A DNA stretch of 64,000 nucleotides, taken from the NCBI RefSeq assembly GCF_003171715.1, contig NZ_QGHL01000020.1, positions 124,001 to 188,000 on the forward strand, written 5' to 3'. Shown piece after piece: positions 26,819 to 33,452 of this stretch; the first letter of the stretch is position 1; each line of letters begins with the position of its first letter. Below the pieces are notes generated by a model, which had not been told where the DNA came from, did not search any database, and was given only the letters and a program-made list of their open reading frames with translations. A program made the position numbers and the translations under genes. Source of the stretch: Novosphingobium meiothermophilum. GTDB lineage: Bacteria > Pseudomonadota > Alphaproteobacteria > Sphingomonadales > Sphingomonadaceae.

Positions 26819-27051
26819 TGGGGCGATCTCCTCTCGTGTTCTGGTCTAGCCTCTGGCCAGCCTCCGTTCCAGAGCGATGCCGGGCCAGGACGGACAAGGC
26901 TGCATTGCATTCCTGCATCCAATTGCACTTTCGTGCCGGTTCGCCTATGGGCCAAGGCAACGCCCCGGCCGAAGCGATGGAGTCGCCTCCAACGTTATGC
27001 CGGGGTTTTTGATTTCCCGTGGGTGCGCCCACTCCGAAGGATTGCCCGAAG

Positions 27052-27837
27052 ATGTCCCGTCGCCGCCAGATCTACGAAGGCAAGGCCAAGATCCTTTACG
27101 AGGGCCCCGAACCGGGCACCCTGATCCAGTATTTCAAGGATGACGCCACCGCGTTTAACGCGCAGAAGCGCGGCACGATCAACGGCAAGGGCGTCATCAA
27201 CAATCGCATCAGCGAATACGTGTTCACGCGCCTTGCCCATATCGGCATCCCCACGCACTTCATCCGCCGCCTGAACATGCGCGAACAGCTCGTGCGACAG
27301 GCCGAGATCATCCCGATCGAAGTGGTGGTGCGCAATATCGCCGCAGGGTCCATTTCCAAGCGCCTTGGCATTCCCGAAGGCGAACCCTTGCCCCACACGC
27401 TGATCGAATACTATTACAAGGACGATGCGCTGGGCGATCCGATGATTGCAGAAGAGCACATCGCATGCTTCGGATGGGCTTCGAACGAGGAAATGCAGGA
27501 CATCTCCTCGATGGCTATCCGCGTGAACGATTTCCTGTGCGGCATGTTCGCGGCGATCAACATCAGCCTTGTCGATTTCAAGCTTGAGTTCGGCCGCATC
27601 TGGGACGGCGATTACAGCCGCGTGATCCTGGCCGACGAGATCAGCCCCGATGGCTGCCGCCTCTGGGACATGACCACGGGCGAGAAGCTCGACAAGGACC
27701 GCTTCCGCCGCGATCTGGGCGGTGAAGAGGAAGCCTATCAGGAAGTCGCGCGCCGTCTCGGCCTGCTTGAGAACGACGGCGGTCCCAGCGAAGTCTTCGA
27801 CCTTGGTGCCCACCGCAAACTGCGCGGCAAGAAGTAG
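27052..27837 (+). CDS. purC: Phosphoribosylaminoimidazole-succinocarboxamide synthase
   Basis: 261 aa of the expected SAICAR synthase. Landmarks: [12 protein letters not shown] near the N-terminus, [38 protein letters not shown] and [14 protein letters not shown]. It makes SAICAR from CAIR, aspartate and ATP in purine synthesis. ATG 27052 begins [13 protein letters not shown]; the upstream in-frame start adds 11 unlike residues. A terminator follows. Confidence 0.97.
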
Positions 27838-28032: not shown

Positions 28033-31000
28033 TCAGAAGCCGGAGCCGGGCCCGTAGGTGATTTCCACCCGGCGGTTCTGAGGTTCGCGCACGCCATCGG
28101 CGGTGGGCACGCGCGGATTGGTTTCACCAACACCCGAAGCCGAAATCGCCGATCCGTCCACACCCTTGCTTTCAAGGTATCCGCGCACCGTCACGGCGCG
28201 GCGTTCCGAGAGGCCCTGATTGTACTTGGCCCCGCCCGACTTGTCGGCATGGCCAACCACCATCACCGGCACCTTGGCGCAGTTGCCATAGGCGGTCACC
28301 GCATTGTCCAGAACCGTCGCAGCCTCAGGCGTAATGGCCGTGCTGTCCCAATCGAAGAACACGATATACGGACCCTTGTTGCAAACCGGTGCCGGAGCAG
28401 GCGGCGGCGGGGGCGGCGGAGGCGTTTCAGCCGGCGGCGGAGGCGGCGGAGGCGGAGGCGGCGGAGGCACCGCTGCCGAGCCGCCAAACCGGACCACCAG
28501 ACTGCCGAAGAACGCATTGTCCTTCAGATCGCTGGCAAAGCGGCCCTGATACCCGATCCGCCCGGTTACCCGGTCGGAGAAGGCCCCGGCCAGGCTGAAC
28601 CCGGCCATTACCGAGTCGCGCTTGGTAACGGGCGAGCGCGTGGTGAACAGACCGCCCGCCGGACCATCGGCAAACCGCTGGGTCGTGGTGAAGAACCCGT
28701 CGCCACTGTCGTTGCGATAGGCCACCTTCGCTTCGGGAATGATGCCCCCGAAGTTTCCGGCCCACTTCAGACCCGCCATCAGCGCGGTATTGCTTTCGGT
28801 CTGATCGGCGAACTGGAGATTGGCCCCCGGCACACCCGTTTCGGTAAAGCCCTTCAGCTTCACGCTGGTGTGTTCGGCCGCGGCAAACGGGGTCAGCCAA
28901 GTCTGGCCCAGCGGCACCCGCACACCGGCCTCGCCATAGAACGAGGTGACGGCGAAGTCGGACTTGCCAGTGATCAGGCCGGCGGTGGACAGCACCGCAA
29001 CCGACCGACGGCTGTTGCCGCCGAGATCGGAATAGCTGCCGTTTGCGCGCAGATAGAAGTTGCCATTGTCAAATCCGGCCAACGCACCGATCTGATAGCC
29101 GTCGGCCGAAATCCGGCCCTGATTGCGGTCGAAGTCCGCCGAATATTTGCGGTAGCCCCCGAACGCACCGATGGTGAAGCCGCCGGTCGTGTAGTCCAGC
29201 CCCATCAGAGCAAAGGTGCCGTCGCCTTCGAAGCCCGGCGCGTTCACGTCGGTATCGATCCTCGCATCGTTGTAGCCACCCAGCGCCCAGAGACGGAAAC
29301 CGCCTTCCCGGTTCCGGCAACCATCGACCCCTTCGCGGCTGATCGCGCAGTCAAGCTGATCGGACACCAGGGTGGACACCTGCAGCGCATTGTTGCGCAG
29401 GCCGTGCATGTATCCGGCATACTGATCGCCCGAAAGCTGCGTCAGTGCCCCCGCATAGGTTGCCGGGGTTTGCAGGAACAGGTTGGCCAGAAGCGTTCCG
29501 AACGGGCCAGTCTGGTTCGGGCTGTAAACAGCCTCGATCCCGCCGCCGGTTGCGGCCTGGTTGAAGGTCAGGCCGGGCACGGCATCGAAGGCCACCCGGT
29601 TGACCCGCAGGTCCACATTGTTCAGCGCATCATAGGTGACAACCGGCGTCAGCAGCGCCGAACCCGTGCTCGTCACCACGCTGGAGAACGTGCCGTTGCG
29701 GGTGGCGGCATCGATGATGTCGTTGAACACGTAGCTGTTGGCGTAGAGCCCGTTGGGCGGCGACAGGCCAACAACCAGCGTTCCGGCGAGGTTCGCAGTA
29801 TTGGCGTTGATATAGGGATATGCTGCCTGTGCTGCCGTGGCGCTGTTGCTCGTCACCAGTTGCATCGACAGCGTGCTGCCGGAAGCCATGGTGAAGGTGT
29901 TCACGTTGACCGCTGCCGGTCCTTCGTAGTTCGGGTTGTTGTTGGGCTGGTTGACCAGCAACAGCGTTGCGCCATTGGCAACCGTCATGGTGCCGACGAG
30001 CGGCCCGACCGGCCCGGCCGCCAGAGTGCCGATGCCGCTGCTGATGACCTCTTCCTCGACAAACGGATTGACGATGCCGTCCAGCGTCGTCGTGCCGCTG
30101 GCAATCGTGATCGTGTCGGCAGCGGCAAGCTTGATGTTGCCATAGACCGAACTTGCACCCTGGAAGCGGATGTCCACGGGATTGGGGGCCGCCGAAGTAT
30201 CGATGGCCGTGCCGCGCCGGAAGGTGGTTCCGCCATTCACGCTCTGCCGGGCAATGATCGTGCCGCCGTTGTTCACGATGGTCATGCGATCATTTGCACC
30301 GGGCACGATCGGCGAGATTGCGAAATCGGTCACGAGAATGCCGGTTGCGCGCGAAGTGCCGCCGTTCGTCACCGCTGTGGCGCGGATCGTTCCGGTATTG
30401 GTGAACGTGGTCGTGTTCACGGCCGATTCAAAGTGCACGCCAACTGCATTGGCTTCGGCATTCGGACCTTCGGCAGGAGGCGCGCCGGTTGCCGTTGCGG
30501 TCACTGCCAGCGTTCCGCTGTTCGCCACGGTGCCGCTGATGCGATTGGTCCATGTCGCCCAAGGGTCATCCGGCTCTTCTGCTGTTGCCTCGAACAGCGT
30601 CGGCTCTTCGCCGCCGCCATGGCCACCACCGCCGCCGCCATGGCCACCGCCGCCGCCGCCATGGCCACCGCCGCCTTCTTCCTCTGCCGGCAAGGTGGTC
30701 GGATCGATATTGGCAAACAGCGCCATACCCTTTGCCGCGGCGCTGGCAGAGCCGCTGCTTCCCGCAGTGGCGTTGACGGTAAATGTGCCACCGTTGGTTA
30801 CGTTGAGCGCCAGAGGCTCGCTAACTACCTGATACCCCAAGGCATTGGCCGAAGAAGAAGCGCCCGTTCCGCCTGAAGCAGTTGACGTTGCCGACGTGGT
30901 GAAGCTGCCGCCATTGGCAAAACTGGCGTTGAAGCCGCCGATGGAAACGCCCGTCTGACGGACGCCCTCGGCTGCGGCTGCGGCACTGGCCGAGCCGCCG

Positions 31001-32415
31001 GTGGCAGAAGCCGTGGAACCGGCAGTGAATGTGCCTGCATTGCTGAAGGCCACATTCGAAACGCCAATGATCTCGCCGTTCTGCAGAACCGCTGCGCCCA
31101 GTTGCGACGAAGCACTGCTGGCGCCCACCGCAGTGCTGGTGGCCGCCGTCGAAACGGTGATCGTGCCAGTAGCTGCATTTGAGATCGTCGCAGTGCCCAC
31201 CCGGCCTACGAACGATTCGGGGCCACCTGCTTCCACGATCTGACGAATGGTCCCGTTCGAGATCGTGCTCGCGCCGGCGCTGCCTTCCGCACCGGTCGAC
31301 GTCGCCCGCGATGTGAAGGAGGCGCTGATCGTGCCGGCGTTGGAAAGGGTGGCATTGGCCGTGCCCGCGTCGGCGCCGCTCGCCTGCGCCTGGATCAGGA
31401 ACACCGACCCCTTGCTGTCCTCGGCGGTGGAGAAACCATCGCCGCCCAGCGCGGTGGCGCTGGCATTGCCAAGAGCCAGAGAAGAGGCGCTCGATCCGAC
31501 AGAAATGCTTGCACCCGCATTGTTGGTCAGCGAAGCGTTGCCAACGTCCACACCTGTGCCATTAACGGCGCTGCGGATGTGGAACAGACCGTGCTCGCCT
31601 CCACCTGCACTTGCAGTGGCTTCTGCATCCAGCGCGGTCGATGTGCTGTTGGCAGAAGATGAAGCGGTGATCGTGCCACTGTTGGTCAGGCTGGAATTGG
31701 CAGTGACATTGCCGCTCCCATTACCCTGCGCACGAATGAACACGGCCTCTTCCAACTCGGCAGTTGCACTGGCTGAATCGGTGGCGCGGGCCGAAGCGCC
31801 AGACGTGAAAACGAAGGTTCCGCTGTTGGTGTGGCTGACGGTCGTGGTTCCCGTCTTGTTGCCTTCAATCACCGCTTCCTGATGCACCCCGCCGATCGCA
31901 GAGGACGTGGCCCGCGCACCAAGTGCATTGCCCTCACCCGGCCCGGTGGCGCCGACTGCGCTGGCAACAGCTTGAGTCGACACTGCGCCAGAGTTGGAAT
32001 AAGTGCCCGAAACCGCAGTGTAAGGCCCCGCGATGTTCTGGTTGATGCCGTCCGTCAGCGAGGCATTCGCGATGGCTTGCGCGTCGGCGTTGGTTGCCGT
32101 TGCACTCGCACGGATGGTCGTGCTGCCATTATTGAGCAACGAGGCGCTACCTGTTGTCGCACCACCTTCTTCACCTTGCACCAGCTGCTCGATCGTTCCC
32201 GTAGGAACGTCAGCTACGGTGGCGCTCGCGGCAGGCGATCCGGTGCTGGTCACGCCAGTTGCCAGCGGCGCTTCGCCGGGGATGGTGGCAGAAGCCGGGA
32301 GGCTGAGACCGGGAACCGTCACAGTGGTCATCTGCGCCACTGCCGGCATCGCGACACACAGAGCAGTAAGCGAAGCCCCCATCACGATCTGCTTGCGGTA
32401 TTGCCTTTTTCTCAT
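28033..32415 (-). CDS. Autotransporter-OmpA hybrid surface protein
   Basis: 1460 aa. ATG 32415 is 6 nt from AGGAGG. A signal peptide (MRKRQYRKQIVMGASLTALC..AVAQ) is followed by a passenger of about 12 degenerate beta-type repeats (residues about 78-710) and a second beta-helical part ending in a two-Cys segment. An autotransporter beta-barrel lies at about residues 1041-1312 (FRLWALGGYNDARI to LVVRFGG). A proline linker (about 1315-1345) leads to an OmpA peptidoglycan-binding domain (about 1345-1460: IVFFDWDSTAITPEA, VVGHADKSG, NRRVEI). Normally these barrels end at the outer membrane, so the C-terminal OmpA domain would lie in the periplasm and anchor the protein. A His/Gly-rich tract lies at about 579-603. 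Inferred adhesin. Confidence 0.88.
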   Translation of the reverse strand: MRKRQYRKQIVMGASLTALCVAMPAVAQMTTVTVPGLSLPASATIPGEAPLATGVTSTGSPAASATVADVPTGTIEQLVQGEEGGATTGSASLLNNGSTTIRASATATNADAQAIANASLTDGINQNIAGPYTAVSGTYSNSGAVSTQAVASAVGATGPGEGNALGARATSSAIGGVHQEAVIEGNKTGTTTVSHTNSGTFVFTSGASARATDSASATAELEEAVFIRAQGNGSGNVTANSSLTNSGTITASSSANSTSTALDAEATASAGGGEHGLFHIRSAVNGTGVDVGNASLTNNAGASISVGSSASSLALGNASATALGGDGFSTAEDSKGSVFLIQAQASGADAGTANATLSNAGTISASFTSRATSTGAEGSAGASTISNGTIRQIVEAGGPESFVGRVGTATISNAATGTITVSTAATSTAVGASSASSQLGAAVLQNGEIIGVSNVAFSNAGTFTAGSTASATGGSASAAAAAEGVRQTGVSIGGFNASFANGGSFTTSATSTASGGTGASSSANALGYQVVSEPLALNVTNGGTFTVNATAGSSGSASAAAKGMALFANIDPTTLPAEEEGGGGHGGGGGGHGGGGGGHGGGEEPTLFEATAEEPDDPWATWTNRISGTVANSGTLAVTATATGAPPAEGPNAEANAVGVHFESAVNTTTFTNTGTIRATAVTNGGTSRATGILVTDFAISPIVPGANDRMTIVNNGGTIIARQSVNGGTTFRRGTAIDTSAAPNPVDIRFQGASSVYGNIKLAAADTITIASGTTTLDGIVNPFVEEEVISSGIGTLAAGPVGPLVGTMTVANGATLLLVNQPNNNPNYEGPAAVNVNTFTMASGSTLSMQLVTSNSATAAQAAYPYINANTANLAGTLVVGLSPPNGLYANSYVFNDIIDAATRNGTFSSVVTSTGSALLTPVVTYDALNNVDLRVNRVAFDAVPGLTFNQAATGGGIEAVYSPNQTGPFGTLLANLFLQTPATYAGALTQLSGDQYAGYMHGLRNNALQVSTLVSDQLDCAISREGVDGCRNREGGFRLWALGGYNDARIDTDVNAPGFEGDGTFALMGLDYTTGGFTIGAFGGYRKYSADFDRNQGRISADGYQIGALAGFDNGNFYLRANGSYSDLGGNSRRSVAVLSTAGLITGKSDFAVTSFYGEAGVRVPLGQTWLTPFAAAEHTSVKLKGFTETGVPGANLQFADQTESNTALMAGLKWAGNFGGIIPEAKVAYRNDSGDGFFTTTQRFADGPAGGLFTTRSPVTKRDSVMAGFSLAGAFSDRVTGRIGYQGRFASDLKDNAFFGSLVVRFGGSAAVPPPPPPPPPPPPAETPPPPPPPPAPAPVCNKGPYIVFFDWDSTAITPEAATVLDNAVTAYGNCAKVPVMVVGHADKSGGAKYNQGLSERRAVTVRGYLESKGVDGSAISASGVGETNPRVPTADGVREPQNRRVEITYGPGSGF
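30300..32190 (-). repeat. About 12 degenerate protein repeats in the autotransporter passenger
   Basis: The repeat unit is 40-60 aa, with a core strand like SLTNSGTITAS followed by an Ala/Ser/Thr-rich run and then a polar GxVxxIxxxAxG-type turn. Examples of the core: SLTNSGTITAS, SLTNNAGASIS, TLSNAGTISAS, TISNAATGTIT, AFSNAGTFTAG, SFANGGSFTTS, TVANSGTLAVT, TFTNTGTIRAT. Nucleotide copies have diverged, so this is a protein-level repeat. Confidence 0.75.
30607..30680 (-). repeat. His-Gly(6) tandem tract inside the autotransporter gene
   Basis: 21-nt repeats coding HGGGGGG three times, flanked by EEE and EE: acidic-His-Gly cluster at about residues 579-603. It interrupts the beta repeats just before a new repeat begins. 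Confidence 0.8.
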
Positions 32416-33376: not shown

Positions 33377-33452
33377 TGGTGCCGCTTACGTGACTCGAAC
33401 ACGTGACCCCATCATTACGAATGATGTGCTCTACCGACTGAGCTAAAGCGGC
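33377..33452 (-). tRNA. tRNA-Thr (CGU)
   Basis: 76 nt on the minus strand. The acceptor is GCCGCTT with AAGCGGC, discriminator A and encoded CCA. The anticodon CGT lies at 33417-33419 (complement) within the ATCAT/ATGAT stem; T-loop GTTCGAGTC. Confidence 0.97.

What the first reader, a model, noticed from the sequence alone, without database searches (positions are those of the whole stretch)
28033..32415. Autotransporter barrel followed by an OmpA peptidoglycan-binding domain
A C-terminal OmpA domain follows a complete autotransporter barrel with a proline linker. Normal autotransporters end in the barrel. Here the periplasmic OmpA domain would tie the surface passenger to the cell wall, a physical bridge from outside to peptidoglycan.
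Basis: partly seen in the sequence, partly recalled or inferred. Interest (0 to 1): 0.6.

Follow-up and report, generated by a model that had tools for sequence, protein, structure and literature searches.

The report
Autotransporter with built-in cell-wall anchor
A bacterial surface protein that normally ends in its outer-membrane pore here continues into a domain of the kind that grips the cell wall; similar add-on tails recur on several kinds of outer-membrane protein in related bacteria, and some genomes that have them lack the usual cell-wall anchor protein OmpA.

Summary
Observation confirmed. Window 28033-32415 (-) is one open gene of 1460 aa: signal-like start, predicted beta-solenoid passenger, complete 12-strand autotransporter (AT) barrel (PF03797, 255/255), Pro-rich linker, complete OmpA domain (PF00691, 98/98) with the peptidoglycan-binding Asp and Arg. 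It is not a one-off. Of 70 related barrels in 249 genomes of the family, 24 (18 genomes) run into OmpA, 43 stop after the barrel, 1 has another tail, 2 run off a contig. The trait changed at least about five times, and such tails also sit on distant AT barrels and on TonB receptors. The OmpA domain is 72% identical to the genome's own ordinary OmpA, the barrel region 21%: domain capture. Unexpectedly, 8 of 19 AT-OmpA genomes lack the ordinary OmpA barrel, against 5 of 230 others. Best reading: a surface solenoid continuous with an OmpA-type peptidoglycan tether that may stand in for OmpA in some lineages. Surface display and binding are inferred, not measured. Precedents: trimeric ATs with C-terminal OmpA, inverse ATs with LysM, AtaA-TpgA. 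I found no monomeric (type Va) case in print in my searches of open papers. New variant of a known kind.

The parts
28033..32415 (-). Coding sequence of the AT-OmpA protein, 1460 aa plus stop
   Evidence: Single open frame; Pfam PF03797 + PF00691
32422..32427 (-). Ribosome-binding site AGGAGG, 6 nt before the ATG
   Evidence: Read in the sequence
32335..32415 (-). Probable Sec signal peptide (aa 1-27, ending AVA)
   Evidence: Read from the sequence; no signal-peptide predictor was run
29596..32334 (-). Passenger, predicted beta-solenoid (about aa 28-940), rich in A/G/T/S with repeated N-x-G/A motifs
   Evidence: AlphaFold2 model, mean pLDDT 82; composition and motifs
30571..30690 (-). Gly/His/Glu-rich tract, predicted disordered (aa 576-615)
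   Evidence: Model residues 549-588 with pLDDT below 50; coordinates
29314..29565 (-). Helical segment leading into the barrel (about aa 951-1034)
   Evidence: Helices at model residues 16-99
28486..29301 (-). 12-strand autotransporter barrel (aa 1039-1310), last strand ending VVRF
   Evidence: PF03797 1-255/255; strands counted in the model; Foldseek top hits EstA, AaaA, NalP, EspP
28384..28485 (-). Pro-rich linker (aa 1311-1344)
   Evidence: Sequence and codons; low confidence in the model
28036..28383 (-). OmpA-type peptidoglycan-binding domain (aa 1345-1460), with Cys1345 and Cys1379
   Evidence: PF00691 1-98/98; this Cys pair is invariant in the 20-row alignment
28243..28245 (-). Codon of Asp1391, aligned with the diaminopimelate-binding Asp of OmpA
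   Evidence: Alignment with E. coli OmpA; position
28198..28200 (-). Codon of Arg1406, aligned with the diaminopimelate-binding Arg of OmpA
   Evidence: Alignment with E. coli OmpA; position

Best explanation
This is a monomeric (type Va) autotransporter that has acquired the C-terminal half of a sphingomonad OmpA: Pro-rich spacer plus peptidoglycan-binding domain. Proposed working: Sec export; the 12-strand barrel is assembled by the BAM machinery with its end-of-barrel signal internal, as in OmpA; the beta-solenoid passenger is displayed outside through the barrel; the C-terminus stays in the periplasm, where the linker lets the OmpA domain reach the wall and bind diaminopimelate through Asp1391 and Arg1406. 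One polypeptide then joins cell surface, outer membrane and peptidoglycan, so that load on the passenger is passed to the wall and the outer membrane is stapled to it. In some lineages the protein may have taken over the tethering role of ordinary OmpA. Shown: one gene, complete domains, conservation of the architecture and binding residues, repeated gain and loss, domain capture, co-occurrence with absence of the ordinary OmpA barrel. Inferred: topology, binding, load transfer, replacement.
For: Complete barrel and OmpA domain in one frame; 12-strand model with AT folds as best PDB matches; beta-solenoid passenger model. Architecture kept in 19 further loci from several genera; Asp, Arg and two Cys invariant in 20 aligned sequences, the window included; the Asp...RR motif in 22 of 22 AT tails, 3 of 3 TonB-receptor tails and 92 of 92 other OmpA tails of one set. 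Codon positions 1 and 2 differ much less than position 3 in the OmpA part (13-24% against 45-51% over five relatives), as in the barrel: consistent with purifying selection. Linker about as long as in ordinary OmpA (median 40.5 aa/25 Pro, n=22; 39 aa/23 Pro, n=83), so the same gap could be spanned. OmpA domain 71.6% identical to the genome's own OmpA but 20.9% in the barrel region. 24 of 70 related barrels fused, 43 stop after the barrel; the fused barrels are not one clade. Ordinary OmpA barrel absent in 8 of 19 AT-OmpA genomes against 5 of 230 others, Fisher p 2.4e-7; by genus 4 of 9 against 5 of 87, p 0.004. Functional parallel: the LysM domain of YeeJ binds peptidoglycan and raises surface display and biofilm (PMC5595812, passages).
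Against: No experiment on topology or binding. The OmpA part of the model has modest confidence (block means of pLDDT 33-87, only 20 sequences). A close relative (G252, passenger 65% identical over about 1000 aa) does without the tail, with a stop two residues after the matched barrel, and two others carry a Pro-rich tail without OmpA, so the tail is dispensable. The window's own genome keeps ordinary OmpA, so replacement cannot be claimed there; 11 of 19 AT-OmpA genomes have the ordinary barrel. The eight without it fall in four genera, so independent events are few.
Confidence: 0.72

Rival explanations
1. The main job is that of OmpA: the AT barrel is just another outer-membrane foot for the wall tether, and the passenger is incidental.
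For: G230, a single-contig genome, has an AT-OmpA with almost no passenger (593-aa frame) and no match to the ordinary OmpA barrel; 8 of 19 AT-OmpA genomes lack that barrel; linker length as in OmpA.
Against: All 16 complete fused frames are 1497-2363 aa, i.e. keep long passengers; the window's passenger aligns at 35-65% identity over about 1000 aa with six relatives, one of them without the tail; 11 of 19 AT-OmpA genomes still have the ordinary barrel, the window's own included.
Confidence: 0.22
2. The tail helps biogenesis, oligomerisation or placement (for example keeping the precursor near BAM and the wall, or confining the adhesin) rather than carrying load.
For: Loss of the LysM domain lowered surface display of YeeJ (PMC5595812, passages); simulations of AtaA-TpgA suggest that a periplasmic partner reinforces the barrel even without wall coupling (PMC13082670, abstract and passages).
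Against: Relatives without the tail exist with intact barrels, so the tail is not generally needed for assembly; the wall-binding residues are conserved in the tails tested.
Confidence: 0.15
3. The tail is a neutral passenger of recombination, perhaps at the Pro-coding tracts, with no function on the AT.
For: Tails are more alike than the barrels that bear them, within G1043 (31% barrel, 91% tail) and also between genomes (L293/L239, 24% and 84%); gains and losses are frequent; an alternative Pro-rich tail exists.
Against: Codon pattern of purifying selection in the OmpA part, conserved binding motif, and the link with absence of the ordinary OmpA barrel.
Confidence: 0.08
4. Artefact of frame or assembly.
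For: Both AT genes of G1067 break off at a contig end in the Pro tract, so the tract is hard to assemble.
Against: Same architecture in one frame in many genomes, including five genes in the single-contig G1120 and one in the single-contig G230.
Confidence: 0.01

Closest known systems
Trimeric autotransporters (type Vc) of Streptobacillus moniliformis with C-terminal OmpA, and of Veillonella with SLH domains (PMC7549365)
   Same: A wall-binding domain (PF00691 or SLH) after the membrane anchor of an autotransporter; wall attachment suggested by the authors
   Different: Trimeric YadA anchor, other phyla; here a monomeric 12-strand PF03797 barrel in Alphaproteobacteria with a Pro linker like that of the bacteria's own OmpA
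Inverse autotransporters (type Ve: intimin, YeeJ) with a periplasmic LysM domain
   Same: One protein spans surface, outer membrane and peptidoglycan
   Different: Wall domain N-terminal, LysM, reversed topology; a review states that such a periplasmic domain is not found in other AT types (PMC6555100, passage)
AtaA-TpgA of Acinetobacter
   Same: An autotransporter adhesin anchored through a peptidoglycan-binding protein; NCBIfam's TpgA model matches the OmpA part weakly (34.1 bits, cut-off 350)
   Different: Two proteins, trimeric barrel
OmpA of sphingomonads (8-strand barrel + Pro linker + OmpA domain)
   Same: Linker length and OmpA domain (71.6% identity with the own-genome OmpA)
   Different: A different, 8-strand barrel and no passenger
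Classical type Va autotransporters (EstA, NalP, EspP)
   Same: Helical segment and 12-strand barrel
   Different: They end at the barrel (recalled for these named proteins; seen here in 43 of 70 related barrels)

Membership tests
Type Va (classical, monomeric) autotransporter | N-terminal Sec signal peptide | tested here: inconclusive
   Sequence looks right; no predictor run
Type Va (classical, monomeric) autotransporter | Passenger N-terminal to the barrel, usually a beta-solenoid | tested here: met
   AlphaFold2 model, mean pLDDT 82, pTM 0.85, strand pattern read as a solenoid; PDB matches to AT passengers only weak, best E 0.024
Type Va (classical, monomeric) autotransporter | Alpha-helical segment plus 12-strand PF03797 barrel | tested here: met
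Type Va (classical, monomeric) autotransporter | Protein ends at the last barrel strand | tested here: not met
   150 residues follow the last strand; so it is filed as a variant, not a standard member
Type Va (classical, monomeric) autotransporter | Passenger exported to the surface | not testable with these tools
   Needs experiment
OmpA-type peptidoglycan-binding domain | Complete PF00691 match | tested here: met
   98/98 positions, E 5.8e-18
OmpA-type peptidoglycan-binding domain | Diaminopimelate-binding Asp and Arg | tested here: met
   D1391 and R1406 align with E. coli OmpA; invariant in 20 sequences; motif in 22 of 22 AT tails
OmpA-type peptidoglycan-binding domain | Binds peptidoglycan | not testable with these tools
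   Needs pull-down
Inverse autotransporter (type Ve) | Barrel N-terminal to the passenger | tested here: not met
   Barrel at 1042-1290 of 1460, C-terminal to the passenger
Trimeric autotransporter (type Vc) | YadA-type anchor | tested here: not met
   Pfam lists only PF03797 and PF00691
OmpA porin | 8-strand N-terminal barrel | tested here: not met
   12-strand AT barrel; 20.9% identity to the own OmpA in the barrel region

The most novel reading that the evidence does not exclude
In sphingomonads and at least one other alphaproteobacterial group, the OmpA half is a moving C-terminal tether module that has been put on autotransporters and TonB receptors many times, and in several lineages the autotransporter version has replaced OmpA as the outer-membrane-to-wall staple, making surface display and envelope tethering one protein.
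Probability: 0.4. Interest if true: 0.75.

Novelty: new variant of a known kind. Interest (0 to 1): 0.6.

Why it matters
Outer-membrane adhesins under load raise an open question: what keeps a barrel from being pulled out of a membrane with little support of its own. A single-chain solution, with natural relatives with and without the tail and one almost without the passenger, makes this directly testable. The link with absence of the ordinary OmpA barrel suggests that a main wall tether of Gram-negative cells can change its membrane foot, and the TonB-receptor versions suggest that wall anchoring is a portable trait of outer-membrane proteins.

Tried and rejected
Artefact of frame or assembly: rejected. 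Recent copying from the window genome's own OmpA: not supported; the window's tail is closer to the tail of another AT (75.9%, L041) than to its own OmpA (71.6%). One single origin of the AT tails judged from the OmpA-domain tree: rejected with L045 included (p-AU 0.012) but not without this long branch (p-AU 0.144), so I rest the repeated-gain claim on the barrel tree, which itself warns of long branches. Conserved neighbourhood as a clue to function: none found in all loci compared (the two largest clusters there are antisense or shadow frames of the AT gene itself); the window's neighbours are purC, tRNA-Thr and a class-III aminotransferase. Plasmid location: no plasmid record covers 80% of the C-terminal query (341 records with a partial match). 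Passenger fold search against the PDB: weak only (best E 0.024). TonB receptors with the tail in the family: in the listed matches only 1 of 149 genomes (G1053) spans receptor barrel and OmpA, in 4 genes (at most 10 candidates a genome scored, list cut). A 1008-aa frame with the tail in G312 is an ordinary OmpA behind a long open upstream frame by my reading of its sequence, not another fusion. Searches with profile A1 scored only 4-5 candidates a genome, so their counts are lower bounds; one search scored at most 12 (G1123: 12 of 15; the other seven AT-OmpA genomes without a match had every candidate scored).

Literature: of ten searches, eight bear on the architecture (two others were on TpgA and on the OmpA residues). 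In their listings, several of them cut to the top 12-20, I saw no report of a monomeric AT or a TonB receptor with a C-terminal OmpA domain; this covers open-licence PMC papers only. Two AT surveys were checked by word search: PMC3419190 has no 'OmpA' or 'peptidoglycan'; PMC9289746 has them only in its reference list.

Full report
Observation. The finding lies at window 28033-32415 on the minus strand: one open frame from ATG 32415 to the stop at 28033, 1460 aa, with AGGAGG six bases before the start. Pfam finds two families, both complete: PF03797 autotransporter barrel at 1042-1290 (255 of 255 positions, E 2e-42) and PF00691 OmpA at 1353-1448 (98 of 98, E 5.8e-18). Between the last strand (ending VVRF at aa 1310) and the OmpA domain lies a Pro-rich linker.

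Anatomy. An AlphaFold2 model of the last 525 residues (20 sequences) gives helices, then 12 barrel strands (my count) at high confidence, a low-confidence linker, and an OmpA-like domain at low to moderate confidence. The best PDB matches are autotransporters: EstA, AaaA, NalP, EspP. A second model, aa 28-960 (6 sequences), has the strand pattern of a beta-solenoid, mean pLDDT 82, and a disordered Gly/His/Glu-rich tract; its PDB matches are weak, the best being an autotransporter at E 0.024. The N-terminus looks like a Sec signal (not tested with a predictor). The OmpA domain has the Asp and Arg (D1391, R1406) that align with those of E. coli OmpA; in A. baumannii OmpA, Asp271 and Arg286 bind diaminopimelate (PMC12108004, passages seen). 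That the E. coli residues are D241 and R256 is recalled.

The host. The genome is 3.47 Mb in 20 contigs. It holds 7 PF00691 and 2 PF03797 matches, among them one ordinary OmpA (409-aa frame). The AT's OmpA domain is 71.6% identical to that OmpA while the barrel region aligns at only 20.9%: domain capture.

Distribution. A scan of one genome for each of 84,980 species found 419 related stretches, of which the best 80 were kept; 19 of these (L040-L058) cover barrel, linker and OmpA, from Novosphingobium, Altererythrobacter, Alteraurantiacibacter, Croceicoccus, Altericroceibacterium, Aquisediminimonas, Erythrobacter and less precisely named MAGs. In the order sample (296 genomes) 8 loci in 7 genomes match the whole fused profile. 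In the class sample (385 genomes) two genomes of another family (G649, G570) also carry AT-OmpA proteins, without a poly-Pro run. In the phylum sample (349 genomes, E <= 1e-30) no full-length match lies outside this family; of 18 listed barrel-only matches outside it, 17 run over a stop codon, so these proteins end within or at the matched stretch. A barrel-only profile in 249 genomes of the family gave 71 rows = 70 loci. I checked the tail of all 70 (and earlier loci; recount): 24 continue into OmpA (18 genomes, five of the loci in the single-contig genome G1120), 2 run off their contig within the Pro tract (both G1067), 1 has a Pro-rich tail with a CPDGS motif and no OmpA (G156), and 43 stop at the end of the barrel. 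For three of the 43 (L273, L276, L285) the profile match ends 31-51 residues before the stop and the barrel end is judged by eye. A close relative in G252, with a passenger 65% identical over about 1000 aa, also stops two residues after the matched barrel.

Evolution. On a tree of 86 barrels the OmpA label needs six changes, five of them forced by well-supported branches, and a single clade of fused barrels is rejected (p-AU 1.45e-109; long-branch warnings, SH-aLRT support only). Other, distant AT barrels bear such a tail in G1051, G1043, G1082, G1151, G1123 and G1148 (six tested by Pfam, six with PF03797 and PF00691). Tails can be far more alike than the barrels that bear them: within G1043, 31% barrel against 91% tail; within G1120, L241 against the other four, 57-63% against 96-97%; but also between genomes, L293/L239 24% against 84% and L294/L295 62% against 86%. 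For the window against five relatives the two are similar (barrel 64-70%, tail 66-76%), and in G1028 (77% against 75%) and L043/L046 (85% against 79%) tails are no more alike than barrels. This shows a shared, moving tail; exchange or conversion within genomes is suggested but not proved, since the domain is also well conserved in itself. The OmpA-domain tree is ambiguous on single origin: p-AU 0.012 with the long branch L045 and 0.144 without it.

Selection. In the OmpA part, codon positions 1 and 2 differ by 13-24% and position 3 by 45-51% between the window and five relatives, much as in the barrel. The Asp...RR motif is in 22 of 22 AT tails, 3 of 3 TonB-receptor tails and 92 of 92 other tails of the first set (rows were chosen by the sphingomonad GPYIVFF signature). 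In the later fused loci put to the test the motif was found wherever the tail was complete and unmasked; in L238 (masked) and L243 (contig end) it could not be read. The tails of L319-L337 were not put to this test. Linkers match those of ordinary OmpA: median 40.5 aa with 25 Pro (n=22) against 39 aa with 23 Pro (n=83).

A link with absence of OmpA. I made a profile of the ordinary 8-strand OmpA barrel alone (17 sequences) and searched 249 genomes of the family; all 49 barrel-positive genomes recur, so I take it for the same sample. 236 of 249 match. Of the 13 that do not, 8 carry AT-OmpA (G243, G1043, G230, G1067, G1078, G1110, G1123, G1148; G1067 is counted although its genes run off the contigs). 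So 8 of 19 AT-OmpA genomes lack the barrel, against 5 of 230 others (Fisher p 2.4e-7); among genomes at least 90% complete, 8 of 18 against 2 of 218 (p 8.6e-9); by genus, 4 of 9 against 5 of 87 (p 0.004). G1051 and G1082, which have only other-barrel AT-OmpA genes in my data, were counted among the 'others'; both have the ordinary barrel. A search with the tail agrees: in G1043, G1123, G1110, G243, G230 and G1148 every close tail listed sits on an AT frame (for the second tails of G1123 and G1148); G1078 has its only known one cut by a contig end and G1067 shows none. In G1038, G1120 and G1053, too, the close tails sit only on AT or TonB-receptor frames, but these genomes do match the barrel profile and were not counted as lacking it. 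G230, one contig, has a 593-aa AT-OmpA with almost no passenger; its next best tail match is 38% identical. The caveats are relatedness (four genera) and assembly gaps.

TonB receptors. The same kind of tail follows plug and barrel of TonB-dependent receptors in one MAG (G1053: 4 genes; three tested by Pfam, three with plug, barrel and OmpA). In G570 and G649, 35 and 27 OmpA-domain matches were found at E <= 1e-6; of the rows listed, 26 of 34 and 20 of 27 lie in frames of 900 aa or more (recount), of which one in each is the AT-OmpA of L153 and L152. Of 16 such stretches fetched, 15 gave a frame with the searched motif (L320 gave none). Nine of the 15 went to Pfam: 9 of 9 have OmpA and plug (the plug of L327 only just over its cut-off), 6 of 9 also PF00593.

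Mechanism. I read it as a surface beta-solenoid whose barrel carries, on the periplasmic side, an OmpA wall anchor on a spacer of the usual OmpA length. Steps shown: gene, domains, conservation, capture, association. Steps inferred: surface display, wall binding, load transfer, replacement of OmpA. That an end-of-barrel signal can work internally follows from OmpA itself (general knowledge).

Comparison with what is known. [quoted passage not shown] Yet trimeric ATs with C-terminal OmpA (Streptobacillus moniliformis, eight genes) and SLH domains (Veillonella) are in print (PMC7549365, passage), AtaA is anchored by the separate protein TpgA (PMC13082670, abstract and passages), and the LysM domain of YeeJ binds peptidoglycan and supports display and biofilm (PMC5595812, passages). 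So the principle is known; the monomeric PF03797 form, its repeated capture, the link with absence of OmpA and the TonB-receptor form did not appear in the listings of my searches of open papers. I file it as a new variant of a known kind.

Noticed in passing
L319, L321-L334 (G570, G649); L091, L104, L114 (G1053): TonB-dependent receptors with a C-terminal OmpA domain: in two genomes of one genus 26 of 34 and 20 of 27 listed OmpA-domain matches lie in frames of 900 aa or more (9 of 9 tested have plug + OmpA), and 4 genes in one Erythrobacteraceae MAG. No report turned up in my searches.
   Followed up: partly
L045:7411, L046:4647, L047:7341, L048:7386, L053:7378, and L177 downstream of the AT: A gene for a TPR protein with a sulfotransferase domain (PF13469; tested in 5 of the 6) lies just downstream, same strand, of the AT gene in 6 of 21 loci compared; perhaps a passenger-modifying enzyme. 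The window's neighbours do not include it; the genome's best matches lie on other contigs.
   Followed up: partly
L126 (G230): An AT-OmpA with almost no passenger: signal-like start, short stretch, AT barrel, Pro linker, OmpA, 593-aa frame.
   Followed up: partly
L177 (G156), L179 (G321): AT barrels followed by a Pro tract, a CPDGSVILATDTCP motif and a second Pro tract, with no OmpA: an alternative tail of unknown role.
   Followed up: no
window 30571-30690: Gly/His/Glu-rich tract inside the passenger, predicted disordered and also present in the relative L127; could bind metal.
   Followed up: no
L009 (G000 C9): The genome's only other PF03797 match ends at its barrel in the usual way.
   Followed up: no
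window 33377-33452 and 27019-27837: The AT gene lies between tRNA-Thr and purC, a setting of housekeeping genes rather than an adhesin operon.
   Followed up: no
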